Shown here piece after piece: positions 8,428 through 63,941 of a DNA stretch of 64,000 nt. The DNA is taken from positions 2,232,992 through 2,296,991 of the forward strand of contig NZ_CP132333.1 of the NCBI RefSeq assembly GCF_030758935.1, written 5' to 3'. This DNA is from Geothrix sp. PMB-07 (GTDB lineage Bacteria; Acidobacteriota; Holophagae; Holophagales; Holophagaceae). Numbering within the stretch: the first letter of the stretch is position 1; each line of letters opens with the position of its first letter. The position numbers and the translations under genes were made by a program. The notes beneath the pieces were generated by a model. The model was not told the DNA's origin. It did no database searches and was given only the letters and a program-made list of their open reading frames with translations.

Positions 8428-8437
8428 TCGGGAACAG

Positions 8438-40542: not shown

Positions 40543-40676
40543 ACCCTTCTCCTCGATGCACAAAGTCAAAGAGGGTAGCGCGAAATGAGGGGTGGGGGCA
40601 GCCATCCAAAGGATCGGCAGGGGAGAAGCGATCATCCGGGACCAGCGGGCAGATTCGGTTGAAAGCACATCTCATC

Positions 40677-40877
40677 GGGATTCGAACTGCGCCTGGCTTC
40701 GCCAGCCGCCGGTCCCGCTTCGGTACTCAGAATGTGTCTCGTCCCACTCAGGCGGGATTCGAACTGCGCCTGGCTTCGCCAGCCGCCGGTCCCGCTTCGG
40801 CACTCAGAATGTGTCTCGTCCCACTCACGCGGGATTCGAACTGCGCCTGGCTTCGCCAGCCGCCGGTCCCGCTTCGG
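40677..40877. repeat. 77-bp tandem repeat, about 2.6 copies
   Basis: Units begin at 40677, 40754 and 40831 with GGGATTCGAACTGCGCC and are nearly identical over at least 47 bases; the third diverges after 40877. Each can fold with an outer GCGGGA/TCCCGC pair and an inner CTGGC-ttc-GCCAG hairpin. Each holds a TTCGAA reminiscent of a tRNA T loop, but no cloverleaf forms. Stop-free frames through the array are by-products of the repeat. It lies outside the element, just left of its left junction. Confidence 0.85.
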
Positions 40878-40940
40878 CGTGCCTTTGGGGCACGCCTCGG
40901 GCGGTCCCACTCGCAGGTTCGAATCCCAGGTCACTCCAGC

Positions 40941-40963
40941 AAAAAACCCCCGGCAAGCGGGGG
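40941..40963 (-). terminator. Terminator, probably the original one of tRNA-Thr
   Basis: On the minus strand a 6-bp GC stem (40958-40963 with 40947-40952) is followed by six T residues (40946-40941). It lies just beyond the left copy of the tRNA 3' end, where the tRNA-Thr transcript would have ended before integration. Confidence 0.7.
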
Positions 40964-40970
40964 CTTTTGC

Positions 40971-41015
40971 TGGAGCCAACTACAGGATTCGAACCTGCGA
41001 CCTGCTGATTACGAA
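40971..41015. repeat. Left attachment-site copy (attL core, 45 bp)
   Basis: A 45-bp stretch identical to 57449-57493. It is the 3' part of tRNA-Thr, from the CCA end through the T arm to the anticodon stem, after which the sequences diverge (ATAGTG here, TCAGCT in the intact gene). It marks the left end of the integrated element. Confidence 0.93.
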
Positions 41016-41121
41016 ATAGTGTATCGCGGCTGTTCGGGGTGGTTTGGGTTCGTTGCCTAGCTGAAAAATATACACTTATTTTTAAAAAAATGGTGCGGAG
41101 TGGTTGACTGTGGTCCACATT

Positions 41122-41179
41122 CTCCGTCAGAATCCCGTCAAAGTGATTTTTTGGGGTTTGGCCGTGGCGCTCCGTCAAA
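41122..41179. promoter_or_regulatory. Left integrase arm-type sites (candidate)
   Basis: CTCCGTCAG at 41122, CCCGTCAAA at 41134 and CTCCGTCAAAT at 41170 are copies of one motif; a TTTTTTGGGGTTTG block is at 41147-41160. The right end carries the same motif as CTCCGTCAAA at 57393 and 57404, and the inverted block CAAACCCCAAAAAA at 57410-57423. Shared direct motifs near both junctions are what lambda-type integrases use as arm sites. Confidence 0.5.
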
Positions 41180-42342
41180 TTGAGATCAGCAAGGAATCCC
41201 TTGATGGCCTGAAGCCCGCAACGATGGCCTATGAGGTGATGGACACGAGGCTGGATGGATTCGGCGTGCGCGTGAATCCATCAGGAAAGATCGCCTTCAT
41301 TCTTCGATGGAGCCTCCATTGCCGGGACGGGCGCGGAACGCTTGGAACTTACCCAGTGATGACCGTCGCGGCCGCCCGTAAGAAAGCCTCTGTGTGGATT
41401 GGAATGGTGGCCAACGGCGAGGATCCGCGTCTGGAGAAACAGCGCCTACGGGCCGCGCAGACAGTGAAGGAATTTATGAAGGACTGGCTCAGCAAGCACG
41501 TCTCGCAGCTGAGCAAGAAGACCATCAAGGATTACACCCGTATCGCGAACAAGGTGATCCTCCCTGCCCTCGGTACCCGCATGGTGGCAGATGTGACCGA
41601 GAAGGATGCCCTTGAGCTTCACCAGTCCTTAGCGGCCCACCCTCGTTCCGCAAATATGGCCCTTGCGGTGCTCTCCAGCGCCCTTTCCAGCGCCGAGGAG
41701 TGGAAGCAGCGGCCGCAAGGCTCGAATCCCTGCCTACACGTCCTCCGGTTCGAGGAGGAGGAGCGAGTCAGGTCTCTCAGTGAAGAGGAAATGGCCGCCT
41801 TCACAGCCTTCCTCGATCAGAACGAGGAGAAGCATGCCCTGCCAGTTGCTCAACTGCGCCTCCTCTTGATGACCGGTGCACGTCTCGATGAGGTTAAGAA
41901 ACTCGAGTGGGCTTGGGTGGACTTGGAAGGGGGTGTGATCTGCATCCCGAAGGGTCAGCACAAGACAGGCCGAAAGACCCAGAAAAACCGCCTGGTGGCA
42001 TTGGGACCGAACGCGGTGGAACTGTTGCGAGCGCGGGCCAAGCGGAAGCTGTCGAAGTGGGTCTTTCCTGGTGAAGATGGTCCCTATTCCGGCCTACATA
42101 GCTGGTGGCAGCGGCGACGGAACACCGAATTGAAGAAGATCGGCCTGAATGATTTTCACATCCATGATCTTCGCCACACATTCGCCACCTGGGCCAGGCT
42201 GAAAGACGTGGACCTCGATGCTGTGGGAGATCTCCTCGGGCACACCACGAGCCGTCAAACCCGCCGGTACGCCCATGTCATGCCCACCAAGCTGAGGGCT
42301 GATGTGGGTCTAGTCGAGCAAAGCATGTCCAAGGGAAGTTGA
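41164..42342 (+). CDS. int: Tyrosine-type integrase of the element
   Basis: GTG at 41164 gives MALRQIEISKESLDGLKPAT, a normal start for the N-terminal DUF4102 domain; a TTG at 41104 and an ATG at 41224 are alternatives. 392 residues. N-terminal domain ~1-90, core-binding helices ~95-190, catalytic domain ~205-380 with Arg in MTGARLDEVKKLEW, HDLRHTFATWA (H, R), the GHTTSRQ histidine, and the nucleophile Tyr in RRYAHV. This P4/DUF4102 type favours tRNA 3' ends, as seen here. It probably makes and removes the 45-bp tRNA-Thr junctions. Confidence 0.93.
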   Translation: MALRQIEISKESLDGLKPATMAYEVMDTRLDGFGVRVNPSGKIAFILRWSLHCRDGRGTLGTYPVMTVAAARKKASVWIGMVANGEDPRLEKQRLRAAQTVKEFMKDWLSKHVSQLSKKTIKDYTRIANKVILPALGTRMVADVTEKDALELHQSLAAHPRSANMALAVLSSALSSAEEWKQRPQGSNPCLHVLRFEEEERVRSLSEEEMAAFTAFLDQNEEKHALPVAQLRLLLMTGARLDEVKKLEWAWVDLEGGVICIPKGQHKTGRKTQKNRLVALGPNAVELLRARAKRKLSKWVFPGEDGPYSGLHSWWQRRRNTELKKIGLNDFHIHDLRHTFATWARLKDVDLDAVGDLLGHTTSRQTRRYAHVMPTKLRADVGLVEQSMSKGS

Positions 42343-43380: not shown

Positions 43381-43695
43381 TGAGCCATATTGAGTCGTCC
43401 TTGATGATTGGAAGGGGATTAATCCGATTAACACCCCTGGGGGAACCACGGGCCATGGAGTGTGGCCCGCACCCTTGACCAGACGGGATGTGAGCAACAA
43501 TCCAAAGAAAGGATGCTGTCCCCAGGTCAAATGCTTCGTTATCCAGTAGTATTTTTTCGGGTTTATCGTCGCATTTTATATATTCATTGCGCTTATTTTG
43601 TACCACGGAAGGTTCCAAATTTTTCTCCAGATCAACCCTACCTTGGGTTGTCAGCGGACCAGTAGTCATTCCCTGACATTCACGAGGCGGGCGAA
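43381..43695. other. Intergenic stretch, 315 bases
   Basis: AT-rich in its second half (43545-43620), where runs of T and A may hold a promoter for the genes to the right. I find no RNA gene or repeat here. Confidence 0.4.
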
Positions 43696-48506: not shown

Positions 48507-48809
48507 ATGATTCACCTGAGTATCGACACCAAGGGCTTGATAGACAAATTGAAACTAATCCGGGAATCGGCCTTGAAATATGCGGTGAACATCGGCTTGA
48601 ACAAAGCTGCTAGAGAAGCCGCTATTGCATTTCAAAATGAGATCAATACAAAGGTAGACCGACCAAACCCATTAACACAAAGGGCCTCAAAATTCCTTCC
48701 GGCGCAGAAATGGCCGGTTCCCAGATTTAGGTCCGGGCTAAATGTGAAGGTCGGGTTGAAAAAGAGAGAGCTAATGGCCGGTTGGCCAGGAGCTTCCAGG
48801 AGATGGTAG
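48507..48809 (+). pseudogene. gpZ-like minor tail protein, 5' part (interrupted by IS)
   Basis: AAGGGAG precedes ATG at 48507. The product MIHLSIDTKGLIDKLKLIRE ... INTKVDRPNPLTQRASKFLPAQKW resembles the N-terminus of lambda gpZ-type minor tail proteins (helical start, then an RAS/K motif). After ~88 residues the frame runs into the insertion element and stops at 48809. The missing C-terminal half resumes at about 50144. Tail completion should fail, so the gene is broken. The two halves do not join in frame at any tested duplication, which may mean a small deletion at the insertion point. Confidence 0.6.
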
Positions 48810-49820
48810 CTTGGCTTCCATCTCCGGAGAGGGTAGAGCAACGCTGGGAAGCGACTTGAGCGCTTCGGAGATGCACCGGACGGTGTTGGCCAGGGGAAAC
48901 GCCCTGGCCTTTTCTGTCAGGGCGTTGGCCTCCACCGGGGGTGCCCAAAGCGATAAATCCCGGGGGTCCGGGGGCAGAGCCCCCGTCGCAGGGAGACCGA
49001 GCTGAGCCAGTTCAATGGTGCAGCGGAACTCGGTTGGGGTGAGGTAGCCCAGGCTGCTGTGCGGGCGCTCCTCGTTGTAGCGACGGCGCCAGGCTTCGAC
49101 GATGACCTTGGCCTCAGCCAGGCTGGAGAAGGCCTCCATGTTCAGGCATTCGTCCCGGAACTTGCTGTTGAAGCTCTCGGCCACGCCGTTGGCCCAGGGC
49201 GAGCCCGGGGGGATGTAGAAGGTCTGGGCACCGGTGGCCATCAGCCAGACCTGGAGGTCATGGGCGATGAACTCGGGGCCGTTGTCACTGCGCAGGAATG
49301 CGGGCCATCCCCGGGTCTGGAACAAGCGTTTGAGGACCTGCATGACCTCCTCGGCCTTGAAGGAGGAGGCCACTTCGATGACCAACGCCTCCTTCGTAAA
49401 CTCGTCGGTGAGCGTCAGGCACTTCACGACCTCGCCGTTCAGGCAGCTGTCGTGGACGAAGTCGTAGGACCAGACCTGGTTGGGATACCCGGATTTCATC
49501 GGCACATGCTGGCCGGTCCGGAGGTGCTTTTTGGGACGCCGCCGGACCTGGAGGCCATGGGCTTTGAAAACCCGGTGGACCCGTTTCAGGTTCACCCGGA
49601 GCTGGAGCCGCCTCAGGAGGGCCCAGACGCGCCGGTGGCCATAGCGGGGGTTGGCATGGGCAAGCTGGACGATCCGCTCGTCCAGCCCATCCAGTTTCAC
49701 CCGGCGTGAATACCGGACATAGGAACGGCTCAGGCCCATGGCCCGGGCAGCGCGCCGCTGGGAGAAGCCGGTGGCCGTCAGGTATGCCGCCCCCTCCTTT
49801 CGCTGCGACGCGCCACTCAT
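48771..49820 (-). CDS. IS3-family transposase OrfB (integrase core)
   Basis: 349 residues from the ATG at 49820. Catalytic DDE: WSYDFVHD (D), FLRSDNGPEFI (D) and GVAESFNSKFRDE (E). Ends beyond the usual YLTPTEF tail with ~75 extra residues, perhaps reading into flanking DNA. OrfA stops at 49817 and OrfB opens at 49820; a run of seven A (minus strand, 49826-49820) is the likely -1 frameshift site that makes the OrfAB transposase. Pattern matches the IS407-like branch. Confidence 0.88.
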   Translation of the reverse strand: MSGASQRKEGAAYLTATGFSQRRAARAMGLSRSYVRYSRRVKLDGLDERIVQLAHANPRYGHRRVWALLRRLQLRVNLKRVHRVFKAHGLQVRRRPKKHLRTGQHVPMKSGYPNQVWSYDFVHDSCLNGEVVKCLTLTDEFTKEALVIEVASSFKAEEVMQVLKRLFQTRGWPAFLRSDNGPEFIAHDLQVWLMATGAQTFYIPPGSPWANGVAESFNSKFRDECLNMEAFSSLAEAKVIVEAWRRRYNEERPHSSLGYLTPTEFRCTIELAQLGLPATGALPPDPRDLSLWAPPVEANALTEKARAFPLANTVRCISEALKSLPSVALPSPEMEAKLPSPGSSWPTGH

Positions 49821-52103: not shown

Positions 52104-53216
52104 ATGAACGAACCGGTGCGCCTTCCCCAAGTGCCCAAAAGCTATCGCTGTGGGCCTGTGACAATGATTCCGCGTGGTGGCCGTTGGCATTTTCGTTACC
52201 AGCTCGGGAACGAGCGGAAGCTGCGCACGACGCGGGAACCATTGAAGAATAGGGCCAGGGCAGAGCAAGTTGCATTGGACGCCTACGATGCAGCGAAATT
52301 GCGTGCGAGAGGCGAAGAACCAGAACCACGATTACACCAGGCCGTGGACCTTTGGATCCGAGCCAATGCCCTGGCCAAGAGCCGAAGTCACATCGAGAAC
52401 ATCGAGACCTTTGGAAGGAAACACCTCAACCACCTGGCTGACCTCCGGCTGACCCAGCTCACCACAGCCCAGGTTGAGGATGCCCGACGCATCTTCATGG
52501 AGACGCACGCCGCATCGAGCGCAAATCAGTGGCTGACCTACCTTCGCCTGATTTGTCATTGGGCAATCCGCCGCAAGATGATTCGTGCGATGCCCTTCGA
52601 TGTGGCGGAATTGAAGGTCAAAAGGGTCAGGAAACCTCTGCTTCCCAAGGAGAAGGTTTCTGTTTGGCTGGCGGAAGTGGACGCTCTCACGGAACACGAA
52701 CCAAGTCTGGGCCTAGTTCTACGTCTTGAGATTGGCCTGGGATTGCGGGGAAGTGAGGCGCGCCAGGCGCGTTGGGAGTGGCTAGATATCGAGCGCAGGA
52801 CATACACCCCTGGGGATACCAAGGGCGGGGAGGCGTGGGCACGGCCGGTTCCCGAATGGTTGCTGGCAGAACTGCAGCGCATCGCCAAGCCACTCGGATG
52901 GATGGTGCCTGGATTGGCCGGTACACCCGTCAGCCTCTCGAGAGTGCAACGGATCATCGATGCCGCCTGCAAGGCAATTGGTATCCCCAGGTTCACAGCT
53001 CACAGGCTGCGTGCGACCTATGCCACCTGGTTGGCCGATGAGGGAGTACCACTTCACACCATCAAGAACGCCTTAGGGCACAAGGATATAAGGACGACAG
53101 AGGGCTACCTGCAGGTGGATATGCGAGGGGTTGCCGAGGCCCAGAAACGCATTGCCATCAAGACCGGCATGTCCGGGATCAAAAGTGGCAACCCAACCCG
53201 TACACATCGAGACTGA
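52104..53216 (+). CDS. Second tyrosine recombinase
   Basis: 370 residues. N-terminal domain ~1-85, SAM-like core-binding helices ~85-190 (FGRKHLNHLADLRLTQLTTA), catalytic domain with Arg in IGLGLRGSEARQARWEW, HRLRATYATWLADEG, and LGHKDIRTTEGYLQV with the nucleophile Tyr. Sequence is unlike the first integrase. It is downstream of a head gene by 3 bases and directly upstream of the hairpin-rich region. It may be an integrase of a nested or ancestral element, or an invertase-like enzyme. Confidence 0.88.
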   Translation: MNEPVRLPQVPKSYRCGPVTMIPRGGRWHFRYQLGNERKLRTTREPLKNRARAEQVALDAYDAAKLRARGEEPEPRLHQAVDLWIRANALAKSRSHIENIETFGRKHLNHLADLRLTQLTTAQVEDARRIFMETHAASSANQWLTYLRLICHWAIRRKMIRAMPFDVAELKVKRVRKPLLPKEKVSVWLAEVDALTEHEPSLGLVLRLEIGLGLRGSEARQARWEWLDIERRTYTPGDTKGGEAWARPVPEWLLAELQRIAKPLGWMVPGLAGTPVSLSRVQRIIDAACKAIGIPRFTAHRLRATYATWLADEGVPLHTIKNALGHKDIRTTEGYLQVDMRGVAEAQKRIAIKTGMSGIKSGNPTRTHRD

Positions 53217-53627: not shown

Positions 53628-53700
53628 CCCAAGCAAGGGTCGGAATTCAAATCCGACCCTTGCAAAGGTGTGAAGGGAGCGTTCGCACCTTTGGCTTGGG
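53628..53700 (+). ncRNA. Candidate structured RNA, three-way junction
   Basis: A 7-bp closing stem (53628-53634 with 53694-53700) encloses two arms: 10 bp (53635-53644 with 53652-53661) and 11 bp (53664-53674 with 53682-53692, one G.T pair). Loops are 7 bases each. Compact, nearly fully paired 73-base fold. The orientation (plus or minus) is not certain. No known RNA family is recognised. Confidence 0.4.
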
Positions 53701-53960: not shown

Positions 53961-53997
53961 TGGCCAAGGGTGCACGCCGTGCTCCACGGCCCCCGGC
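53961..53997. repeat. Left 37-bp direct repeat of ATPase cassette
   Basis: Identical to 56770-56806 over 37 bases and in the same orientation; flanks the divergent gene pair at 54.0-56.7 kb. Degenerate copies lie at about 56974 and 57121. Confidence 0.85.
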
Positions 53998-54003
53998 GCG
54001 GCC

Positions 54004-56028
54004 TCACTCAGGCCCAGTGCTAGGCCATGGGGTCTCTTTGCCCGATCTAGAGACTGATTTGTATGCTTGGCGTGGGTGGTTCGGTGTGGCGCTCAGCGTG
54101 TAGGCCAGTTTTCCCTTCTCAACCATTGGGGTGAGGTAATCCTTGAGCACGTAGTCCTTTGCCCTACGAAGCAATGTCGCGATCTGATCTGCGGTTAAGG
54201 GTTGAACAAGGCAAAGCTCATAAATGAACTGAGTTACCTTTTGTTTTGCTTGGTACTTCCCTGGACGATGAAGGTCCAGGAGCCGCCTAGCTTCAATCGA
54301 GGCCTCCAGAGACAGCCCCAGATGCTGGAATGGCCACTGCCTGGGGGACTCTGGTGATTCAAAGGTCAACTCTGGAGGTTTGGTGGGGAGGTCTGGAGAT
54401 TTGAGTCCAATTTCTTTGTTTTCATTGTTTAACTCTGGAGGTTTGCCTTCACCCTCGATCAGGTTCCCCCCCGTCAGGTCCATGAGAGGGACTTGGACCC
54501 CAATGGGAATGGATTTGGGGCGGAGGGGAAAAGCGATTGGGTCGAGCAGAAATTGCGTCGGAACATAGTAGGTGGCCGCACCTTTTGCCTGAGACGCCAG
54601 CAATCCGATGTCTCGCAGCCTACGCAAACGACTACTGGCACTCAATGTGTCGAGCAAGGCGATAGTCCGGAAGGTGGCATTGTCGATTGCGCCGGATTCT
54701 CGAGCGTGAATGATTGCCTGGGTTTCTTCCGGGGATAATCCAAAGGATTTGAAGTTGCCCAGCCAAGCAATTGTTTGTTCATCAAGCAAATTGTGAAGCC
54801 AAAAAGTTGATAAAAAGAAATTGTTCTCACGATCCGATTCAAACGCAGGAGGTCCAAGGCCTGCTCCAGCCATTAATCGCTGCATTACTCGAATTCCGCT
54901 CCCTTTATTTTCTGCGAAGCGGGCTTCAAAAAGAATTTGGGCAATATGGGGATTCCTTGGCAATGAGCCTGGTTCCCCTAGGCGATCAATAGATTTGATC
55001 GAATATCCTGGGTTTCTTATTTCAATTCGATTGGAATAACGAATAACTTGTACTGGCGAAGATTCGCGGTAACTCCGGTGAATCAATGCATTCACAACGG
55101 CTTCGCGAATCACGGCAATCGGTATCGTGGGTGTGTCGGTTCGTTGAGCATCAGCTTCCTTTAAGGAGAAGGCTTTGGGGAGACTTTCAACGATAACGCC
55201 TTGGGTTTTTTGGATAAGACGGAACAAGGGTTCCCTGATCTCAAGGCTTTCGAATCGATTTTCAGGATCTTCAACCCATTCCTTACCGTGCACACGCAAA
55301 TAATCAACTCTCATCATAGGGAACCATTTTCTAAGTGCCCTTTTGGTCCCGAACAGCACGATTCCTGCCACCGTAGGAGTCAGCTGACCTTGAAAATCCT
55401 TCACGCATCCAAGCGCATCCAGCAACTCCTCATCTGACCATCCCAGCACCTCAGGATCCTCACCACGCTCACGGCGTATTTTTCGATAATCCTCGATTAC
55501 TTCTGGGTCCAGATCTTCGAGAGTGGCCCCACGAACCGGTGATGCGTCGAAGGTTTCGCTTCCCCTGCCGTCAAAAAGCAATGAAAGGTCCTCATCACTG
55601 CACACCTGGTCGGCAGACCCAATCCGCCGATATGTTCCCTTCGAAATTCCAAGGGCTTTGAGGTAGATCGGTTTTTCTGCTCGATTGGCCTCTGGAACAT
55701 GAACACACAGAACGACCTTGCCATCGATGACAGCTGGTTCAATCTGTGGGCGGAGAGGGACGTTGAAGGCCTGTGAGCAGGCTGAAGCCAAGTCCGTTTG
55801 AATCTTGTCTGGATTGGTGATTCCACGAACCACATAGCTTGGGCTGCCGTCTTCGGTTGCCTCCCGCTCAACACCCAACAGAAGCATCCCACCCCCTAGG
55901 GCTGGTTCGTTGGAGAAGGCGGAGATCGTCTCTTTAATGGACCTTCCAACTTCATTGCAGAGCTTCGCTTCAAGCTTTGGATGCTCATCGACCTGGTTGA
56001 GCTCTTCTAGAAGCTTGATCGCGTCCAT
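54004..56028 (-). CDS. AlbA_2 (Schlafen-like) / GHKL ATPase-domain protein
   Basis: The start at 56028 (MDAIKLLEELNQVDEHPKLE) is chosen as the first residue of recognisable domain. 674 residues. AlbA_2 domain ~10-140 (LEAKLC, FSNEPALGGGMLLLGVERE, GTYRRIGSADQVCSDEDL). C-terminal GHKL-type ATP-binding domain with the N-box REAVVNALIHRSYRESSPVQ near residue 320 and the G box NKGSGIRVMQRLMAGAGLGPP. The last ~250 residues are winged-helix-like with KLYQ-type linker. Such proteins act as transcription regulators or in phage defence. Divergent from the gene at 56086, 57 bases apart. Confidence 0.88.
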   Translation of the reverse strand: MDAIKLLEELNQVDEHPKLEAKLCNEVGRSIKETISAFSNEPALGGGMLLLGVEREATEDGSPSYVVRGITNPDKIQTDLASACSQAFNVPLRPQIEPAVIDGKVVLCVHVPEANRAEKPIYLKALGISKGTYRRIGSADQVCSDEDLSLLFDGRGSETFDASPVRGATLEDLDPEVIEDYRKIRRERGEDPEVLGWSDEELLDALGCVKDFQGQLTPTVAGIVLFGTKRALRKWFPMMRVDYLRVHGKEWVEDPENRFESLEIREPLFRLIQKTQGVIVESLPKAFSLKEADAQRTDTPTIPIAVIREAVVNALIHRSYRESSPVQVIRYSNRIEIRNPGYSIKSIDRLGEPGSLPRNPHIAQILFEARFAENKGSGIRVMQRLMAGAGLGPPAFESDRENNFFLSTFWLHNLLDEQTIAWLGNFKSFGLSPEETQAIIHARESGAIDNATFRTIALLDTLSASSRLRRLRDIGLLASQAKGAATYYVPTQFLLDPIAFPLRPKSIPIGVQVPLMDLTGGNLIEGEGKPPELNNENKEIGLKSPDLPTKPPELTFESPESPRQWPFQHLGLSLEASIEARRLLDLHRPGKYQAKQKVTQFIYELCLVQPLTADQIATLLRRAKDYVLKDYLTPMVEKGKLAYTLSATPNHPRQAYKSVSRSGKETPWPSTGPE

Positions 56029-56085
56029 ATCTCTTGGATGCCCTCGATTACCTGACGGTGAGTCGGCCGGGAACGGCCGTATGGA

Positions 56086-56721
56086 ATGCATGATGCCCCG
56101 GAGAATGGCTCCAGGTCTGCGAAAATATCAGGGCATAACTCCACGAAGGGAGCTTTTTTGGCCACTCCAGACCTCAGCCGTCCGTACGTTCAAGCCTTTT
56201 GTGGGGGCAAATTTTTAAGTGGTACCCCTCGATACATTTTGGTCCAAGTGGCTGATTGGGCAGTTCAGGCGGAGTGTTTTCCCAATGTGGCCACCATGGT
56301 GAAGAAGAAGGGTGGCCGGATCGTGCTTGGGTGGCACCTATGGGAGATCCCGGGATTGCTTCTTGAGGCTGAATATCACTCCGTCTGGGAAAAACCATCG
56401 GGCATCCTGGTGGACATCACCCCTCAGCGCCCGGGATTTGAGGAGGAGCGAATTCTTTTCGTTCCGCGCCGGAAGGATCACCTGCCCAAAAACCCACCGG
56501 ACAACATTCGTCAGCCATTGAGTGATGACCCAGATATTGCCTTGATGTGCAGCCTAAAGGCGCAGTACGTGAAGCTCAGTTCCCAAGGGGAACCTGAGAA
56601 AACGCCTGGTCATTACCGGCTACCCATTGATGTGGCAAGAAAGATCGAAACAGTAATGGCAGAGCACCAAGCAGTGATGGTTCGCCTTTCTGAGAAATAT
56701 CCAGATCAGTTCAGGGCCTAG
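56086..56721 (+). CDS. Conserved hypothetical protein with GW-x-LWE motif
   Basis: 211 residues from the ATG at 56086; the first ~50 residues look unstructured, so the true start may be later. The core VATMVKKKGGRIVLGWHLWE ... LLEAEYHSVWEKPSGILVDI then TPQRPGFEEERILFV is a recurrent pattern in uncharacterised bacterial proteins, some with SEC-C zinc motifs. A G-W-x-L-W-E then E-A-E-x-H-x-V-W-E layout hints at an enzyme-like pocket with an acidic-His pair. Function unknown. Divergently paired with the AlbA_2 ATPase inside the 37-bp repeats. Confidence 0.7.
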   Translation: MHDAPENGSRSAKISGHNSTKGAFLATPDLSRPYVQAFCGGKFLSGTPRYILVQVADWAVQAECFPNVATMVKKKGGRIVLGWHLWEIPGLLLEAEYHSVWEKPSGILVDITPQRPGFEEERILFVPRRKDHLPKNPPDNIRQPLSDDPDIALMCSLKAQYVKLSSQGEPEKTPGHYRLPIDVARKIETVMAEHQAVMVRLSEKYPDQFRA

Positions 56722-56769
56722 CGCTGTCATCGGGTACCAGGCACTCACCAAGCGGATTTGAAATCCAGG

Positions 56770-56806
56770 TGGCCAAGGGTGCACGCCGTGCTCCACGGCC
56801 CCCGGC
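56770..56806. repeat. Right 37-bp direct repeat of ATPase cassette
   Basis: Perfect copy of 53961-53997. It is followed at once by the CCTCACCTGGGCAGCGCAGC repeat family that fills the right end of the element. Confidence 0.85.
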
Positions 56807-57420
56807 CTCACCTGGGCAGCGCAGCGCAGCGGGGCGGCCTGGTGTCCACGGGGAAGAACCGGACCCAAGCTGCCGGATCTTTGGAAGGACGGCTCCGGAA
56901 CTTCCGCTCAAAAATGAGCAAAAGCCACACTTTGAGGCCAGGACCTCAGATCGCAGCTCACGTCCCACCCGGTCAAGGATGCAGGCCGCGCTCCATGGCC
57001 CCGGATCCCCCCTGCACCGTCCTCACCTGGGCAGCGCAGCGGGGCGGCCTGGTGGCCACGCTGCAGCCCACGACCTGGTGGAGGCCTCCCTTCCTGGGTT
57101 CGTTGCTCGCGCAGCACCTGGTCAAGGGTGGAGGCCGTGCTTCCGGCTCCGGTGCACCCCCGGCGTGGCCTCACCTGGGCGGCGCAGCGGGGCGGCCTGG
57201 TGGCCATAGGGAAGCACAGAACCTGCTGGAATCCCAAAGGGTCACATTTAAAATGCGACCCTTTGACCCCCCCTTGTAGGCCTCACCTGGGCAACGCAGC
57301 GTGGCGGGCGGCCCAGGGAAGCATAGGAGCTGGTGGAATCCCAAAGGGTCGCGCTCCAAACGCGACCCTTTGCCCCCCCCCACTTGGTGGGCCTCCGTCA
57401 AAACTCCGTCAAACCCCAAA
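56806..57420. repeat. Repeat-rich right end with GGGTC hairpins
   Basis: CCTCACCTGGGC-type repeats begin at 56806, 57021, 57169 and 57281. Two tandem units 107 bases apart each carry AATCCCAAAGGGTC and a hairpin: 57236-57264 (8 bp plus an inner CATTT/AAATG) and 57343-57371 (11 bp, AAAGGGTCGCG/CGCGACCCTTT). The stems resemble the arm at 53635-53661. No coding gene is accepted here. Confidence 0.75.
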
Positions 57421-57448: not shown

Positions 57449-57493
57449 TGGAGCCAACTACAGGATTCGAACCTGCGACCTGCTGATTACGAA
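57449..57493. repeat. Right attachment-site copy (attR core, 45 bp)
   Basis: Identical to 40971-41015; it is the 3' 45 bases of the intact tRNA-Thr gene. Marks the right end of the element. Confidence 0.93.
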
Positions 57494-57524
57494 TCAGCTG
57501 CTCTACCAGCTGAGCTAAGTTGGC
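57449..57524 (-). tRNA. tRNA-Thr (anticodon CGT)
   Basis: Minus strand. Acceptor GCCAACT pairs with AGTTGGC; D arm GCTC/GAGC; anticodon stem GCTGA/TCAGC with loop TTCGTAA, anticodon CGT (reads ACG); T arm GCAGG-TTCGAAT-CCTGT; discriminator T and an encoded CCA. All arms are intact, so the gene remains functional after integration because the element restored its 3' end. Confidence 0.95.
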
Positions 57525-57564: not shown

Positions 57565-59706
57565 CTACTGGCCGAACCCGGCGGGCAGTTTCATGCCCAG
57601 GTTCTTCACCAGGAAGGCCCAGAGGTCGGCCCGCTCGGCGATGAGCTTGGCGGTGGGCTTGCCGGCGCCATGGCCTGCGTTGGTCTCGATGCGGGTGAGG
57701 ACGGGCGCCGGTCCAGCCTGATCGGCCTGGAGGGTGGCGATGAACTTGTGGCTGTGAGCGGGCACCACGCGGTCGTCATGATCGCCGGTGGTCACCAGGG
57801 TGGGCGGATACTTCACGCCGGGCTTCAGGGTGTGCAGCGGCGAGTACTTGATCAGGTTGGCGAAGCCTTCCGGGGTGTCGCTGGACATGTAGTCGCTCTT
57901 CCACATCCAGCCGATGGTGAACTTGTGATAGCGGAGCATGTCCATGACACCGACGGCGGGCAGACAGGCGCCGAAGAGATCAGGGCGCTGAGTCATGCAG
58001 GCGCCCACCAGCAGGCCGCCATTGGAGCCGCCCTGGATGGCCAGCTTGGGGGTGCTGGTGTATTTCTCCTTGATGAGCCACTCGCCCGCGGCGATGAAAT
58101 CGTCGAAGACGTTCTGCTTCTTTTCGCGCTTGCCGGCTTCCCACCAGTCCTTGCCGTACTCGCTGCCGCCCCGGAGGCAGGCCACGGCATACACGCCGCC
58201 CATCTCCATCCAGACCTGGGCGATGGGTGAGTAGCCAGGAGCCTGGGGAATGTTGAAGCCGCCGTAGGCATAGAGCAGCGTGGGGTTGGCGCCATCCAGC
58301 TTCAGGCCCTTCTTGTAGGCCAGGAACAGGGGCACCTTGGTGCCGTCCTTGCTCGGGTAGAAGACTTCCTTCACTTCGTAGTCAGCGGGCCGGATGTCCA
58401 CCTTGGGCTGCCGGAAGACGGTGCTGGTGCCGGTCTTCAGGTCGTAACGGTAGAGGGTCGGGGGCTGGTTGTACGAGGTGAAGGTGTAGAAGGTTTCTGT
58501 ATCCTCGCGGCGGCCGCTGAAGCCGCTGAGGTTGCCCAGGCCCTCGGGCTGGATCTCTTTCAGGAACTTGCCTTTCAGGTCGTAGAGCTTCACCACGTTC
58601 AGGGCGTCGATCTTCCAGGTCACGGCGAAGGTGTTGCCGAACAGATCCACGGCGGAGAGGACATCCCTGCCCTTGCCCTCGGGGATCAGATCCTTCCAGG
58701 CGGCGGGCTCGGGGTGTTTGAGATCCACAGCCACCAGGCGATGGCGCGGCGCGCCGGCATCCGTGTGGACATAGAAGGTGTCGCCATCGTTGCCGATGAT
58801 GCGGTACGAACCGTCGTACTTGTCGAAGAGGGGCTTCACGGGGCTGCCCGGCTGCTTCAGGTCCTTCAGGAACACCCGGTTCTTGCGCTCGGTGCCCTGG
58901 CTCTGGGAGATGATCAGCCAACGCCCATCATCGGTGATGCCTGCGCCAAAACCCCAGTCAGGCTGGTCGGGGCGTTCATAAACCACCACATCCTTCTCGA
59001 CGGGATCGCCCAGCTTGTGGAAGAAGAGCTTCTGATTTTTGTAGACGGCAGTGAGGGCCTTGCCCGCCTCCACTTTCGGATAGTCCGTGTAGTAGAAGCC
59101 GCTGGCATCCTTGGCCCAGCTGTTCACAGCCAGGCGACCCGCGGGAAGCGCATCGGGCAAATCGACACCCGTAGCCACGTTGCGCACCTTCCAGGTGCTC
59201 ACGTCGGAGCCGCCCTTGGACAGGTTGTAGGCCACGTATTCGCCCTGCTCGCTGAAGCGCATGCCGCCCAGGGCCACCGTGCCATCTGTGCTCAGGGTAT
59301 TGGGATCGAAGAACACCCGGCCCTTCTCCTCCAGGCGCTCGGTCAGGTAGATCACGGCCTGGTTCTGCAGCCCGGAGTTGTAGGAGTAGATGTAGAACTT
59401 CCCATGCTTGCTGGGGGCGCCGTACTTCTCGTAGTTCCACAGCTTGGTGATGCGGGCCTCGATGATCTTCCGCTCGGGGATGCCTGACAGGTAGGCCTCG
59501 GTCACCTTGTTCTGGGCTTCCACCCAGGCCTTGGTTTCAGCGCTGTGATCATCCTCCAGCCAGCGGTAGGGGTCGGCCACCTTGGTGCCGAAGTAGTCGT
59601 CGACCACATCGGCTTTGCGGGTGGCGGGATAGGGGATGGGCGTCTGTGCGCTGAGAACGGTGGCGGCCAGGGCCGTGAGACAGAGGCGGGGCAAGGGGAA
59701 AGGCAT
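57565..59706 (-). CDS. Prolyl oligopeptidase (S9A), exported
   Basis: 713 residues. Signal peptide MPFPLPRLCLTALAATVLSA. Propeller ~75-430 and catalytic domain. Ser in IQGGSNGGLLVGACMTQRPD, Asp in TTGDHDDRVVPAHSHKF, His in NAGHGAGKPTAK. The N-terminal DYFGTKVADPYRWLEDDHSA is the prolyl oligopeptidase hallmark. It cleaves proline-containing peptides, here probably in the periplasm. It lies directly downstream of a close paralogue (76 bases between), making a tandem pair; no terminator between them is clear. Confidence 0.93.
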   Translation of the reverse strand: MPFPLPRLCLTALAATVLSAQTPIPYPATRKADVVDDYFGTKVADPYRWLEDDHSAETKAWVEAQNKVTEAYLSGIPERKIIEARITKLWNYEKYGAPSKHGKFYIYSYNSGLQNQAVIYLTERLEEKGRVFFDPNTLSTDGTVALGGMRFSEQGEYVAYNLSKGGSDVSTWKVRNVATGVDLPDALPAGRLAVNSWAKDASGFYYTDYPKVEAGKALTAVYKNQKLFFHKLGDPVEKDVVVYERPDQPDWGFGAGITDDGRWLIISQSQGTERKNRVFLKDLKQPGSPVKPLFDKYDGSYRIIGNDGDTFYVHTDAGAPRHRLVAVDLKHPEPAAWKDLIPEGKGRDVLSAVDLFGNTFAVTWKIDALNVVKLYDLKGKFLKEIQPEGLGNLSGFSGRREDTETFYTFTSYNQPPTLYRYDLKTGTSTVFRQPKVDIRPADYEVKEVFYPSKDGTKVPLFLAYKKGLKLDGANPTLLYAYGGFNIPQAPGYSPIAQVWMEMGGVYAVACLRGGSEYGKDWWEAGKREKKQNVFDDFIAAGEWLIKEKYTSTPKLAIQGGSNGGLLVGACMTQRPDLFGACLPAVGVMDMLRYHKFTIGWMWKSDYMSSDTPEGFANLIKYSPLHTLKPGVKYPPTLVTTGDHDDRVVPAHSHKFIATLQADQAGPAPVLTRIETNAGHGAGKPTAKLIAERADLWAFLVKNLGMKLPAGFGQ

Positions 59707-59783: not shown

Positions 59784-61895
59784 TCAGGGTTTCAGGCCCA
59801 GGTGCTTCACCAAAAAGGCCAGCACATCGGCCCGTTCGGCGATCTGCTTGGCCGTGGGCTTGCCCGCGCCATGGCCTGCGCTGGTCTCGATGCGGGTGAG
59901 GATGGGCGCGGGCCCCGCCTGGGCGGCCTGGAGGGTGGCCGTGAACTTGTGGCTGTGGGCGGGCACCACACGGTCATCGTGATCCCCCGTGGTGACGAGG
60001 GTGGGCGGATACGTCACGCCGGGTTTGATGGTGTGCAGGGGCGAATACCTCATGAGAGTCTCGAAATCCTCCTTCGTTTCACTGCTGCCGTAATCACTCT
60101 TCCAGCCCCAGCCCAGGGTGAATTTGTGGAAGCGCAGCATGTCCATGACACCCACTTCAGGCACCGCCGCACCAAACAAATCGGGCCGCTGGGTGAGGCA
60201 GGCGCCGATGAGCAAGCCGCCGTTGCTGCCGCCGTTGATGGCCAGCTTCGGGGTGGAAGTCACTTTCTGCGCGATGAGCCACTCGGCAGCCGAGATGAAA
60301 TCGTCGAAGACGTTCTGCTTCTTCTCCTTCCGGCCCGCGTCGTACCACTCCAGGCCGTACTCCCCGCCGCCCCGCAGATTGGCCAGGGCATAGACGCCGC
60401 CCATCTCCAGCCAGACCATGGTGGAGACGGAGAACCAGGGCGTCAGCGAGACGTTGAAGCCGCCGTACCCGTAAAGCAAGGTGGGATTCTGGCCGGCCAG
60501 CTTCAGGCCCTTCTTGTGCACAAGGAACATGGGGATCTTCGTGCCGTCCTTGCTGGGGTAGAAGACCTGCTTCACCTCGAAATCCGCGGGTTTGAAAGCC
60601 ACTTTCGGTTCGCGGAAGACGCTGCTCTTCCCCGTTTTCAAATCCAGGCGATAGATGGTGCCCGGATAGGCGAAGCTGCCGAAGGTGTAGAAGGTTTCCG
60701 TATCCTCGCGGCGCCCGCCAAAGCCGCCTGCTGTGCCCAGGGCGGGCAAGGCGAGGTCGCCTGTCTTCCGACCCTTCAGATCGTAGAACTCGACAGCGGA
60801 GTGGGCATCGCGCATCCAGGTGGCGATGAAGCGGCCTCCCACCAGGGAGACCGACTCCAGCACATCCTTGCCCTTGGCCTGGGGGATGATCTCCTTCCAC
60901 TGGGAAGGCTCGGTCTGGCCACGGCGGATGGCCACCAGGCGGTTGCGGGGCGCGCCCTGGTTCGTGCTGACGTAGAACAGGTCGCCCTCATTGTCGACGA
61001 TGCCGTAGGCCGCGTCCATCTTGTCGAGGAGGGGTTCCACAGCAGCGCCGGGCTGGCTCAGGTCCTTGAGGAAGAGGCTGCTTTCCGGATTGGTGCCCTT
61101 GCCGCAGGAGATCACCAGCCAGCGGCCATCGTCGGTGACACTGCCGCCCAGGTACCACTCAGGCTGATCAGTCCTCTGGTAGACCAGTTCATCCGCACTC
61201 TGAGGCGTGCCCAGTCGGTGGAAGCAGAGCTGGTGGTTGTTGTTCACGCCGGTCAGCGCCCCGCCCTCCTTGGGGGCCTCGTAGCGGCTGTAGAAGAAGC
61301 CGCTGCCATCCTTCAGCCAGGAGGCGCCGCTGGCCTTGGACCAGCGGATTTCATCGGGCAGATCCTGGCCGGTGGCCACGTCGTGAACTTTCCAGGTCTG
61401 CCAGTCGGAGCCCGCCACGGACACGGAATAGGCCATGAGGCGGCCATCCAGCGTGAGGCTGATCCCGCTGAGGGCCACGGTGCCGTCCTGGCTCAAAGTG
61501 TTGGGATCCAGCAGCACGCGCCCCTTGGCCTTGGGATCGTCGCTGACGAAGAGCACGGATTGGTTCTGCAGGCCGGTGTTGTAGGAATAGAAATAGCGCT
61601 TGCCGCGCTTGAAAGGGGCGCTGAATTTTTCAAAATCCCAGAGCTTCGTGAGCCTCGCCTGGATTTTGGCCCGGCCTGGAATCTGCTCCAGATAGCCGAA
61701 GGTGACCTTGTTCTGGGCCTCCACCCAGGCCTTGGTCTCCGCGCTGTTGTCGTCCTCCAGCCAGCGGTAGGGATCGGCCACCTTGGTGCCGAAGAAGTCT
61801 TCCACCACATCGGCTTTGCGGGTGACGGGGTAGCTCAGGGGCGTCTGGGCCGAAAGGGCGGTTCCAAGGGCGATGACCATGGGAAGGATCCTCAT
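59784..61895 (-). CDS. Prolyl oligopeptidase (S9A), exported, paralogue
   Basis: 703 residues. The start at 61895 (MRILPMVIALGTALSAQTPL) is a signal peptide with AGGAG upstream; a minus frame stays open 2 kb further upstream but is a shadow of phoH2. Ser in INGGSNGGLLIGACLTQRPD, Asp in TTGDHDDRVVPAHSHKF, His in SAGHGAGKPTAK. Very similar to the neighbour at 57.6-59.7 kb throughout, so tandem duplication is likely. Substrate range may differ through the propeller. Confidence 0.93.
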   Translation of the reverse strand: MRILPMVIALGTALSAQTPLSYPVTRKADVVEDFFGTKVADPYRWLEDDNSAETKAWVEAQNKVTFGYLEQIPGRAKIQARLTKLWDFEKFSAPFKRGKRYFYSYNTGLQNQSVLFVSDDPKAKGRVLLDPNTLSQDGTVALSGISLTLDGRLMAYSVSVAGSDWQTWKVHDVATGQDLPDEIRWSKASGASWLKDGSGFFYSRYEAPKEGGALTGVNNNHQLCFHRLGTPQSADELVYQRTDQPEWYLGGSVTDDGRWLVISCGKGTNPESSLFLKDLSQPGAAVEPLLDKMDAAYGIVDNEGDLFYVSTNQGAPRNRLVAIRRGQTEPSQWKEIIPQAKGKDVLESVSLVGGRFIATWMRDAHSAVEFYDLKGRKTGDLALPALGTAGGFGGRREDTETFYTFGSFAYPGTIYRLDLKTGKSSVFREPKVAFKPADFEVKQVFYPSKDGTKIPMFLVHKKGLKLAGQNPTLLYGYGGFNVSLTPWFSVSTMVWLEMGGVYALANLRGGGEYGLEWYDAGRKEKKQNVFDDFISAAEWLIAQKVTSTPKLAINGGSNGGLLIGACLTQRPDLFGAAVPEVGVMDMLRFHKFTLGWGWKSDYGSSETKEDFETLMRYSPLHTIKPGVTYPPTLVTTGDHDDRVVPAHSHKFTATLQAAQAGPAPILTRIETSAGHGAGKPTAKQIAERADVLAFLVKHLGLKP

Positions 61896-62003
61896 TGGAT
61901 GATCTCCTGACGGGGAGCCATCTTCCCACCACCGGGTGCTCAAGCCTAGCCGTGCAAGGGGGCGCGCTTGGTGGTAGGGTGCCTCCATCCCTGGAGGTTT
62001 GAT

Positions 62004-63335
62004 TTGGTCCCACCATCCAGCAAGAAAGTCTTCGTCCTGGATACGAACGTCCTCCTGCACGATCCGAATTCCATCCTCCACTTCCAGGAACACGATGTGG
62101 TGCTGCCCATCGTGGTGATCGAGGAAGTCGACCATTTCAAAAAGGATCAGACCGAGGTTGGCCGCAACGCGCGCACGGTCTCCCGCCTGCTGGACAAGCT
62201 GCGCGCCACCGGCAGCCTCAGCCGGGGCGTCCCCCTGGGCGGCGGTGGCACGCTCAAGGTGGACGTGGCCGCCCACAACCTCGACATCGGCATCCTGTCC
62301 GCGGACAAGCACAAGGCCGACAACCAGATTCTGGCCTGCGCCCGGGAGCTGCTGCACACCTGCAAGGACCGCGTGGTCCTGGTCTCCAAGGACACGAACC
62401 TCCGCATCAAGGCCGATGCCATCGGCGTCCAGGCCGAGGACTACACCACCGACCGCGTGGAGATGGATGAGCTCTACACCGGCCACAAGACCTGGGAGGT
62501 GGAGCCCACCAAGATCGACCTGCTCTACGACGGCGGCCTGAAGCCGGACGCGGAACTGTCCCTCTTCCCCAACCAGTATCTGACCCTGGTGGACCAGACC
62601 AATCCCAGCCACACGGCCCTGGCCCGGTTCATGGCTGCTGAGGGCCTGCTGCGCCCCCTGCGGCGCATGGAGTCCTATCCCTGGGGCATCAAGCCCCGCA
62701 ACCGTGAGCAGCAGTTCGCGCTTGAACTTCTGCTGGATCCCACGGTGCAGGTGGTCACGCTCCTGGGCAAGGCGGGCACCGGCAAGACCCTGCTGGCCAT
62801 CGCCGCCGGGCTGCAGCAGGTGGTGGATGACGAATCCTACGACAAGATCCTGGTGAGCCGTCCCGTCATGCCCATGGGCCGCGACCTGGGTTACCTGCCG
62901 GGCGACATCAGCGAAAAATTGCGGCCCTACATGCAGCCCATCTACGACAACCTCGAGTTCATCGTGGGGGCCAACACCGAAGCCCGGAAGCGCACCACCA
63001 TGACCGCGGGCCAGCTGGAAGAGGCCGGGTATCTCAGCGTCGAGCCCCTCACCTACATCCGCGGCCGCAGCATCCCCAAGCAGTATCTGGTGGTGGACGA
63101 AGCCCAGAACCTCACGCCCCACGAGGTAAAGACCATCCTCACCCGTGCGGGCGAAGGCACCAAGGTGATCTTCACCGGCGATCCGCACCAGATCGACAAC
63201 CCCTATGTGGATGCCAGCACCAACGGCCTCAGCTTCCTGGCCGAACACTTCAAGCACCTCGACATCTCCGGCCACGTCACCCTGCAGAAGGGCGAGCGCA
63301 GCAAGCTGGCCGAGCTGGCGAGCAACCTCCTCTAG
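62004..63335 (+). CDS. phoH2: PIN-PhoH protein (PhoH2-type RNase/helicase)
   Basis: TTG at 62004 has GGAGG six bases upstream, and gives MVPPSSKKVFVLDTNVLLHD; another TTG at 61968 has none. 443 residues. N-terminal PIN domain (VFVLDTNVLLHDPNSILHF, Asp and later DKHKADNQIL), C-terminal PhoH ATPase: Walker A LLGKAGTGKTLLAIAAGL, Walker B YLVVDEAQNLTP, then TKVIFTGDPHQID. PhoH2 proteins combine RNA cleavage and ATP-driven unwinding. It is divergent from the S9 peptidase pair. Confidence 0.92.
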   Translation: MVPPSSKKVFVLDTNVLLHDPNSILHFQEHDVVLPIVVIEEVDHFKKDQTEVGRNARTVSRLLDKLRATGSLSRGVPLGGGGTLKVDVAAHNLDIGILSADKHKADNQILACARELLHTCKDRVVLVSKDTNLRIKADAIGVQAEDYTTDRVEMDELYTGHKTWEVEPTKIDLLYDGGLKPDAELSLFPNQYLTLVDQTNPSHTALARFMAAEGLLRPLRRMESYPWGIKPRNREQQFALELLLDPTVQVVTLLGKAGTGKTLLAIAAGLQQVVDDESYDKILVSRPVMPMGRDLGYLPGDISEKLRPYMQPIYDNLEFIVGANTEARKRTTMTAGQLEEAGYLSVEPLTYIRGRSIPKQYLVVDEAQNLTPHEVKTILTRAGEGTKVIFTGDPHQIDNPYVDASTNGLSFLAEHFKHLDISGHVTLQKGERSKLAELASNLL

Positions 63336-63344
63336 GAGCCTGCC

Positions 63345-63896
63345 ATGGCTGATTCTTCCTGGGATAACGGCGGTCAGGGCGTTCCCGTCAAGACGGGCAT
63401 GCCCCTCTGGGTGAAGATCACCATGGGCTGCGGGGTGGCCTTCCTCCTCGCGGTTGTCACCTGCGTGGGGGCGGGTGCCTTCTTCGTCAACAAGGTCAAG
63501 AAGGATCCCGAAGGCTTCAAGAAGCAGGTGCTGGGCTTCGCCATCGACAAGATGAAGCCCGAATGGGAGGACTTCCGGGCCGTGGTGAATCAGCTGCGAA
63601 CCCCGGCCGGCTGTCAGGCCCTGTACACCGCCAATCCGGAACTGGCCAAGACCTGGCCCACTGAAAAAGCCTTCCTGGAGGCCGCTGAAGGCTGGCGGAA
63701 GGACCTGGCCCCCACGCCTGAACTGACGCCGGAGCTCATGGAGCACCACGGCCTGCGCATGAACAAGAACTACGGCGGTCGGGTGGAAGTGGGCTGGAGT
63801 CCCAAGGAGGGCCGGGCCGTCTGCGTCACCTTCGACCGGGCCCGCCTGCCCGGAGACACCGGCCCCCGGCACGTGCTCGAACTGGACGTTCGCTAG
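63345..63896 (+). CDS. Membrane-anchored hypothetical protein, 183 aa
   Basis: An AGGAG site lies 6 bases before ATG. One helix (residues ~25-48, ITMGCGVAFLLAVVTCVGAG) anchors it; the rest (VKKDPEGFKKQVLGFAIDKM ... GWSPKEGRAVCVTFDRARLPG) would be outside the cytoplasm. No recognised family. It follows phoH2 by 9 bases and is likely co-transcribed. Confidence 0.65.
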   Translation: MADSSWDNGGQGVPVKTGMPLWVKITMGCGVAFLLAVVTCVGAGAFFVNKVKKDPEGFKKQVLGFAIDKMKPEWEDFRAVVNQLRTPAGCQALYTANPELAKTWPTEKAFLEAAEGWRKDLAPTPELTPELMEHHGLRMNKNYGGRVEVGWSPKEGRAVCVTFDRARLPGDTGPRHVLELDVR

Positions 63897-63941
63897 CCCT
63901 TCCGCATTGAGCCTGCGCGGTTTTTCCGCCAAGATGCAGTT

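What the first reader, a model, noticed from the sequence alone, without database searches (positions are those of the whole stretch)
53961..56806. Repeat-flanked divergent cassette: AlbA_2/GHKL ATPase plus unknown GW-LWE protein
A perfect 37-bp direct repeat encloses only two genes, transcribed apart from a 57-base gap. AlbA_2 ATPases recur in anti-phage islands. The partner has a recurring but uncharacterised G-W-x-L-W-E...E-A-E-x-H-x-V-W-E core. The cassette lies in the cargo slot near the element's right end, where defence genes are often found. It could be an undescribed two-gene defence or regulatory system.
Basis: partly seen in the sequence, partly recalled or inferred. Interest (0 to 1): 0.65.

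Follow-up and report, generated by a model that had tools for sequence, protein, structure and literature searches.

The report
Schlafen-type nuclease cassette in a prophage
A damaged viral island in this bacterium carries two unrelated accessory genes between a pair of short repeats: a bacterial relative of the Schlafen antiviral nucleases, and a little-known gene that may be a cysteine enzyme; the repeats and genes are real, but there is no sign that the two genes form one system.

Summary
A perfect 37-bp direct repeat (53961-53997, 56770-56806) encloses two divergent genes at the right end of a 16.5-kb island bounded by a perfect 45-bp duplication of a tRNA-Thr end. The proposed two-gene system is not supported. 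Gene 1 is a Schlafen (AlbA_2)-GHKL protein, the architecture of TrlG (growth arrest in Photorhabdus) and of BREX-associated Schlafens; one relative lies inside a BREX-3 operon. Gene 2 belongs to a widespread family, about half of whose sampled members carry a SEC-C tail; ours does not. Of 135 gene-2-family loci, 2 have any AlbA_2 gene in the DNA held, neither of gene 1's architecture; none of 23 other gene-1-family loci has gene 2. Beyond that: (1) the repeat pair lies in a degenerate repeat array private to this locus, and its flanks suggest insertion into one array unit; (2) gene 2 has near-invariant Cys64, His98, Asp110 in papain/transglutaminase order on a confident model, which fold and profile searches did not confirm. 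Most likely a horizontally acquired cargo pair acting separately, gene 1 as a growth-arrest RNase.

The parts
54004..56028 (-). Schlafen-type (AlbA_2) - GHKL ATPase (HATPase_c_4) protein, 674 aa, with a probable winged-helix C-terminal part and a repeat-containing linker
   Evidence: PF04326 E 2.8e-11 and PF13749 E 2.6e-15, both over gathering score (residue numbers there are for the 695-aa version); PHROG 12156 E 1.7e-55; PDB 2kyy on residues 3-144 E 1.3e-39 and 3lmm on 165-398 E 3.2e-7
56086..56721 (+). partner, 211 aa; core domain of a family often fused to SEC-C, here without the SEC-C motif; candidate Cys64-His98-Asp110 enzyme
   Evidence: no Pfam hit; PHROG 37148 E 2.8e-16; Xanthomonas plasmid relatives about 35% identical named SEC-C domain-containing protein; AF2 model pLDDT 88.6, core 94.9
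56275..56415 (+). codons of Cys64 (56275-56277), His98 (56377-56379) and Asp110 (56413-56415)
   Evidence: C 65/66, H 66/66 (His enforced by the search pattern), D 64/66; C, H and D 7/7 in the pattern-free set A1
53961..53997 (+). left copy (A) of the 37-bp direct repeat
56770..56806 (+). right copy (B) of the 37-bp direct repeat
   Evidence: 37 of 37 identical to A, whereas the other pairs among heads A-D share 24-28 of 37
56966..57380 (+). degenerate repeat units C, D and E of the same family (56966-57082, 57115-57230, 57279-57380)
53633..53663 (.). near-perfect hairpin AAGGGTCG...CGACCCTT, sister of 57235-57265 and 57342-57372
   Evidence: the exact motif was found only in this locus among 47 genomes of the genus, own included
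43439..43528 (-). inverted, diverged copy of the repeat head inside the island
40971..41015 (+). left attachment-like copy of the tRNA-Thr end (45 bp, exact)
   Evidence: longer match 40941-41015 at 85%
57449..57493 (+). right attachment-like copy inside tRNA-Thr (57449-57524, -)
41104..42342 (+). tyrosine integrase 1 with arm-binding domain
   Evidence: PF00589 E 5.1e-23, PF13356 E 1.6e-14
52104..53216 (+). tyrosine integrase 2, next to the cassette
   Evidence: PF00589 E 2.6e-19

Best explanation
The cassette is horizontally acquired cargo in the right-end slot of a mosaic, probably degraded prophage integrated at tRNA-Thr. It entered one unit of a repeat array private to this locus, and 37 bp of the unit now stand on both sides (inferred). 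Gene 1 is a Schlafen-GHKL protein. The domains and the family are shown. That it is a regulated RNase is inferred: the GHKL and winged-helix part would sense a stress or phage signal and release the AlbA_2 domain to cut tRNA or other RNA, arresting growth, as TrlG arrests growth at high temperature and as BREX-linked Schlafens are thought to do. Gene 2 is an independent accessory protein whose family recurs in prophages, plasmids and islands without gene 1; its conserved Cys-His-Asp core makes a papain/transglutaminase-like enzyme the best current guess. No step linking the two proteins to each other is supported.
For: Domains. Gene 1 also matches PADLOC argonaute-protein models (best E 8.7e-21, residues 30-366 of the 695-aa version). 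Same AlbA_2 + HATPase_c_4 architecture in TrlG, where mutations in either domain, stops and IS insertions accompany loss of temperature restriction and the wild-type operon restores it (PMC7554251, passages). A distant relative (27.8% over 14-405) lies beside an annotated TrlF in a Pseudomonas plasmid, one inside a BREX-3 operon (27.8% over 1-456), one beside the integrase of a satellite phage, and one just downstream of a repressor-like gene in a viral contig (L204, repressor read by eye). PMC12839542 (passages) reports Schlafen RNase + minimal histidine kinase + wHTH next to BREX and related loci in at least 1017 taxa. SLFN13 E205 and E210 are essential (PMC5862951, passages); Glu15 and Glu20 have the same spacing and each occurs in 7 of 8 rows (read). 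The family is patchy: HATPase_c_4 in 9 of 47 genomes of the genus, own included; the partner in 1 of 60 genomes, own included. GC is 0.49-0.55 over the cassette and 0.62-0.65 in the host flanks. Insertion: outer flanks of the pair resemble other units, inner flanks do not.
Against: No known defence operon was seen beside gene 1 here. The third Schlafen carboxylate (D248 of SLFN13) has no clear counterpart in this subfamily. PDB-wide sequence searches with gene 1 (E up to 0.1) and with a 3-row profile of the close subfamily (E up to 10) found no animal Schlafen chain. Some temperature-tolerant Photorhabdus clones had no trlG mutation; the paper says these could not regrow at 36 C after freezing (PMC7554251, passages). 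For the insertion, the left outer flank is only weakly similar (p 0.036 and 0.006 for two units, 0.79 for a third; uncorrected, 500 mononucleotide shuffles), and bases just inside copy A also resemble unit D (53961-54007 against 57119-57174), so the edge is blurred. For the enzyme reading, Foldseek had no PDB match at E<=0.001, VIA-align gave staphopain only Z 2.6-2.7, and HHalign against Transglut_core was inside its shuffles.
Confidence: 0.6

Rival explanations
1. One reading: an undescribed two-gene divergent defence or regulatory system, with gene 1 as effector or regulator and gene 2 as partner (sensor, modifier or antitoxin).
For: 57-base divergent spacing suggests a shared control region; both families occur on mobile elements; L093 has a partner gene directly followed by a different AlbA_2 gene; 2 of 6 partner-bearing genomes tested had an AlbA_2 gene somewhere.
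Against: 0 of 135 partner loci carry the ATPase; 2 of 135 carry any AlbA_2 gene, neither with a GHKL hit; 0 of 23 other ATPase loci carry the partner; no sigma-70-like promoter was found in the gap, though that scan found no more sites than its shuffles (1 against a mean of 2.0).
Confidence: 0.1
2. The cassette is one member of a set of exchangeable cargo modules: integrase 2 or another recombinase uses the 37-bp head as a site, and the other units of the array are scars of earlier cassettes.
For: Integrase 2 lies beside copy A; A and B are identical while the other pairs among heads A-D share 24-28 of 37; the outer flanks look like parts of one unit.
Against: Neither gene of the cassette is a recombinase; no second cassette or empty site was found; no comparable array was found elsewhere in the genome or the genus; the 45-bp tRNA duplication already explains integration of the island.
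Confidence: 0.15
3. Gene 1 is a housekeeping-type transcriptional regulator or DNA-binding ATPase rather than an RNase effector.
For: Older annotations of relatives as RecG-like or ATP-dependent DNA helicase; winged-helix-like C-terminus; only two of three Schlafen carboxylates are recognisable.
Against: Patchy presence (9 of 47); BREX, TRL and satellite-phage contexts of relatives; TrlG restricts growth (PMC7554251).
Confidence: 0.2

Closest known systems
TrlG of the Photorhabdus temperature restricting locus (PMC7554251, passages)
   Same: AlbA_2 followed by HATPase_c_4; accessory and patchy; a distant relative of our protein sits beside TrlF
   Different: no TrlF or TrlR gene seen beside it here; 28% identity to that relative over 14-405; TrlG itself was not aligned
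Schlafen RNase + minimal histidine kinase + wHTH proteins next to BREX loci (PMC12839542, passages)
   Same: domain order; one homologue of ours is inside a BREX-3 operon
   Different: no BREX gene recognised among the 13 window proteins scanned with Pfam and PHROGs (PADLOC was run on 3 of them)
SEC-C domain-containing proteins of Xanthomonas plasmids and related genomes; PHROG 37148
   Same: core C..NV...GG....GW..WE....EAE.H.VW......D.TP
   Different: ours lacks the SEC-C zinc motif and ends in a helical tail, like several prophage members
Papain-like / transglutaminase-like cysteine enzymes
   Same: Cys at the start of the core helix, then His and Asp on following strands
   Different: no significant fold or profile match

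Membership tests
Schlafen AlbA_2 - GHKL protein family (TrlG type) | AlbA_2 domain | tested here: met
   PF04326 44.4 bits against cut-off 25.3
Schlafen AlbA_2 - GHKL protein family (TrlG type) | HATPase_c_4 domain downstream | tested here: met
   PF13749 56.6 bits against cut-off 26
Schlafen AlbA_2 - GHKL protein family (TrlG type) | C-terminal winged helix | tested here: inconclusive
   only PF21247 at E 0.019, under its cut-off; the region is conserved in two long relatives
Schlafen AlbA_2 - GHKL protein family (TrlG type) | three catalytic carboxylates as in SLFN13 | tested here: inconclusive
   Glu15 and Glu20 match in spacing and each occurs in 7 of 8 rows; no clear third residue
Schlafen AlbA_2 - GHKL protein family (TrlG type) | RNase activity | not testable with these tools
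   needs bench work
TRL operon | TrlF-type gene in the same operon | tested here: not met
   gene 1's neighbours are the divergent partner on one side and the repeat, hairpin and integrase 2 on the other; the rest of the genome was not searched for TrlF
SEC-C domain proteins | SEC-C motif | tested here: not met
   no Pfam hit in the window protein, although 40 of 66 family members match PF02810
SEC-C domain proteins | shared N-terminal core of the family | tested here: met
   tblastn and alignment, 23-36% identity to six relatives
Papain-like superfamily | Cys at N-terminus of core helix, His and polar residue on later strands | tested here: met
   helix 64-75, strands 92-102 and 108-110 on the model; conservation; side-chain distances not measured
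Papain-like superfamily | matching fold | tested here: inconclusive
   staphopain Z 2.6-2.7, rmsd 2.9 over 68 residues, below the noise level given by the tool; Foldseek against PDB none at E<=0.001
Papain-like superfamily | profile similarity to Transglut_core | tested here: inconclusive
   HHalign probability 0.7%, 4 of 30 column shuffles scored higher
Two-gene defence system | recurrent co-occurrence of the two genes | tested here: not met
   0 of 135, 2 of 135 for any AlbA_2, 0 of 23 in reverse
tRNA-integrated prophage or island | integrase and duplicated tRNA end | tested here: met
   45-bp exact duplication, integrases, phage replication, head and tail genes

The most novel reading that the evidence does not exclude
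The partner defines an unrecognised family of papain-like Cys-His-Asp enzymes (signature C..NV...GG....GW..WE....EAE.H.VW......D.TP, with or without SEC-C), spread over many phyla and carried as a lone accessory gene in prophages near repressor genes, in plasmids and in islands, where it acts as a stand-alone phage-exclusion or lysogenic-conversion enzyme; here it was captured together with a Schlafen effector in a cassette that moved by way of a 37-bp repeat.
Probability: 0.25. Interest if true: 0.6.

Novelty: new member of a known kind. Interest (0 to 1): 0.36.

Why it matters
Bacterial Schlafens are a recent link between bacterial and animal antiviral immunity, and this adds one as cargo of a tRNA island. 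The partner result turns a family recognised mainly by its SEC-C tail into a testable enzyme hypothesis with three named residues. The negative result matters too: it keeps two unrelated cargo genes from being listed as a new two-gene system.

Tried and rejected
Two-gene system: rejected by the co-occurrence surveys. itself had no positive control, with a profile, recovered the window's own gene.

Genome-wide interspersed repeat: rejected. The exact repeat has two copies. With the 501-base array as query, 4 of 5 matches at E<=0.001 in the genome lie in this island and one 37-bp match lies elsewhere (40 of 86 first-look candidates scored). In the genus 17 of the other 46 genomes have one weak match each, 27-64 bp long (13 candidates scored per genome). 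The exact hairpin motif occurs only here.

Integron or attC reading: not pursued; the head folds no better than shuffles (z -0.87).

Partner fold: Foldseek against PDB gave nothing at E<=0.001 for the full model or the core. BFVD (full model only) gave one hit at E 1.6e-6, an uncultured phage protein named GIY-YIG_COG3680, not followed. VIA-align on the full model listed almost only matches to the helical tail; on the core, glyoxalase-like chains (best Z 3.6) ranked above staphopain C (Z 2.7), and no transglutaminase or NlpC/P60 chain was named among the rows. A first HHalign run with an unknown option was uninformative and was repeated properly.

Searches without result: partner and ATPase as single queries in viral contigs. 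An alignment of three ATPases found one contig. Rfam showed only the tRNA over its gathering score. Literature: searches; only 62 and 121 used words for the partner family, and their listings showed no paper that I recognised as describing it. I make no wider claim that it is absent from print. [quoted passage not shown]

Ascertainment: the genome and viral scans required an EAExHxxW-like peptide pattern, so conservation of the positions around 93-101 in A3 is partly enforced; Cys64 and Asp110 are not. One search kept the best 80 of 85 relatives. Many loci have flanks shorter than 10 kb, so the co-occurrence counts are for the DNA held.

Dropped rows: before A3, 17 mis-called, truncated or odd partner ORFs flagged by hand (135 to 118), then similar sequences (118 to 80), then 8 loci from annotated records and 7 others, giving 65 + window. 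The SEC-C regex count, 73 of 135, was made with at least one mis-called row, L029. 16 of 109 listed neighbour ORFs were left out of A6.
Full report
What is there. The window is 2232992-2296991 of a 4.24-Mb one-contig genome. A tRNA-Thr (57449-57524, -) has its 3' part duplicated exactly over 45 bp at 40971-41015 and 57449-57493. Between them lies a 16.5-kb island of mostly 0.49-0.59 GC (the transposase region is higher) against 0.62-0.65 in the flanks. It holds a tyrosine integrase (41104-42342), an excisionase-like gene, replication genes with a DnaC-like loader, an IS3-type transposase (48771-49820; type by eye), tail and head proteins and a second tyrosine integrase (52104-53216) (eleven island proteins besides the two of the finding were scanned, not the whole island). 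It looks like a mosaic, probably degraded prophage. The finding lies between integrase 2 and the tRNA.

The repeat. The 37-bp repeat is exact and is found twice in the genome. It is the head part of a longer degenerate unit: further units lie at 56966-57082, 57115-57230 and 57279-57380, and an inverted copy at 43439-43528. Two of the units end in a strong hairpin, and a sister hairpin lies at 53633-53663, left of the cassette. The exact hairpin motif was found in none of the other 46 genomes of the genus searched, and the array as a whole has only short weak matches there (17 of 46 genomes, one each, 27-64 bp). Copies A and B are 37/37 identical, while the other pairs among heads A-D share 24-28 of 37. 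In one search the sequence left of A resembled two other units (p 0.036 and 0.006) but not the third (0.79), and the sequence right of B strongly resembled two units (0 of 500 shuffles each) but not the third (0.23), while the cassette-facing sides resembled none (p 0.14 to 0.92). The simplest reading is that the 2.8-kb cassette entered one array unit and left 37 bp on each side. The p values are uncorrected, and the left edge is blurred by matching bases just inside copy A, so this is likely, not shown. No empty site was found in relatives.

Gene 1. The 674-aa protein has an AlbA_2 domain and a HATPase_c_4 domain, both over Pfam's cut-offs, and matches PADLOC argonaute-protein models (best E 8.7e-21). 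Residues 3-144 match PDB 2kyy (E 1.3e-39) and 165-398 match 3lmm (E 3.2e-7). Long relatives are 38-45% identical in local alignment: one in another species of the genus, near a folK-like and a queC-like gene (names by eye), one in a faecal phage record, and one in a viral contig just after a repressor-like gene. More distant relatives sit in a BREX-3 operon, beside TrlF, and beside the integrase of a satellite phage. HATPase_c_4 proteins are patchy, in 9 of 47 genomes of the genus, own included; gene 1 itself matched at E<=1e-20 in 8 of 199 genomes, own included. TrlG of Photorhabdus has the same two domains, and mutations in either domain, stops and IS insertions accompany escape from growth restriction at 36 C (PMC7554251, passages). 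[quoted passage not shown] SLFN13 needs Glu205 and Glu210 (PMC5862951, passages); Glu15 and Glu20 here have the same five-residue spacing and are each present in 7 of 8 aligned rows, but no clear third carboxylate is seen, and sequence searches of the PDB did not reach an animal Schlafen. I infer an RNase effector held in check by the GHKL/wHTH part and released under stress or infection.

Gene 2. The 211-aa partner has no Pfam family but matches PHROG 37148. Pattern-free tblastn found relatives in 54 plasmid and 3 phage records; 15 of the 30 plasmid records listed, all Xanthomonas, are named SEC-C domain-containing protein. Pattern scans gave 80 genome loci (best 80 of 85) and 46 viral loci, the former from many phyla by their titles. 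By regular expression 73 of 135 carry a SEC-C-like tail, and Pfam finds it in 40 of 66; ours does not, and like several prophage members it ends in a helical tail. In 28 viral loci the neighbouring ORFs include helix-turn-helix and S24 repressor families (HTH_3 in 8 of 93 ORFs, Peptidase_S24 in 4, CI repressor in 1; families overlap) along with tail genes, methylases and some candidate defence models (the 25 commonest families were shown). No neighbour was seen to recur across the sampled loci as a whole, though two Xanthomonas plasmids share an exoribonuclease gene next door. The AlphaFold model is confident (pLDDT 88.6; core 94.9). Cys64 starts the core helix, His98 lies on strand 92-102 and Asp110 on 108-110. 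Cys is kept in 65 of 66, Asp in 64 of 66, His in 66 of 66 (His enforced by the pattern), and all three in 7 of 7 pattern-free rows. This fits the canonical papain-like arrangement of a Cys at the very start of the core helix with a His and a polar residue (PMC10318531, passages). Structure and profile comparisons did not confirm it: no Foldseek match in the PDB at E<=0.001, staphopain at Z 2.6-2.7 with rmsd 2.9 over 68 residues, below glyoxalase-like rows with Z up to 3.6, HHalign against Transglut_core not above shuffles. I hold the enzyme reading at about one in three.

Do they belong together? The ATPase is absent from 135 of 135 partner loci by tblastn at E<=1e-5 with three queries. A profile from nine ATPase-family proteins, the window's own included, finds three candidates, of which two are AlbA_2 proteins and one is a Fic protein: one AlbA_2 gene lies about 7.8 kb away, and one (L093) directly follows a partner gene but shows no GHKL domain. 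At the level of whole genomes, 2 of 6 partner-bearing genomes tested had any AlbA_2 gene. In reverse, none of 23 other ATPase loci holds the partner; three of those loci are the same gene, and most flanks are short. Among 60 genomes searched, 37 of them of the genus, the partner was found only here. The divergent pair is best read as two cargo genes without a shared system.

Verdict. The partner's candidate catalytic core is the part most worth a specialist's time.

Noticed in passing
window 40676-40878: A tandem direct repeat of about 77-bp period (48-bp exact pair 40676/40753 and shorter ones at the same offset) lies just outside the left attachment copy, in a frame that reads as repeated peptide.
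   Followed up: no
window 53633-53663, 57235-57265, 57342-57372: Three similar strong hairpins (AAGGGTCG...CGACCCTT, one with a mismatch) on both sides of the cassette; the exact motif was found only in this locus among 47 genomes of the genus, own included. Possibly parts of the array unit.
   Followed up: partly
window 54358-54445 (gene 1 linker): The linker of gene 1 holds short repeats (PPEL-type); relatives have their own linker repeats at the same place (PHQF-type in G028, AQTHQA-type in L204), so the linker seems to be a repeat-prone spacer.
   Followed up: no
L204:7071-7772 and 7965-10049: A 43% relative of gene 1 lies just downstream of a repressor-like gene in a viral contig, a common spot for lysogenic-conversion genes (repressor read by eye).
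   Followed up: no
BFVD A0A6J5NTA5: A 384-aa uncultured-phage protein named GIY-YIG_COG3680 matches the partner model (Foldseek E 1.6e-6), a possible fusion of the partner core to a nuclease domain.
   Followed up: no
L034 (Agrobacterium vitis plasmid): A partner-family gene is the fourth gene after an annotated CBASS cyclase.
   Followed up: no
window 57565-59706 and 59784-63932: Two neighbouring prolyl-oligopeptidase-like genes lie side by side just outside the right end of the island (names by eye).
   Followed up: no
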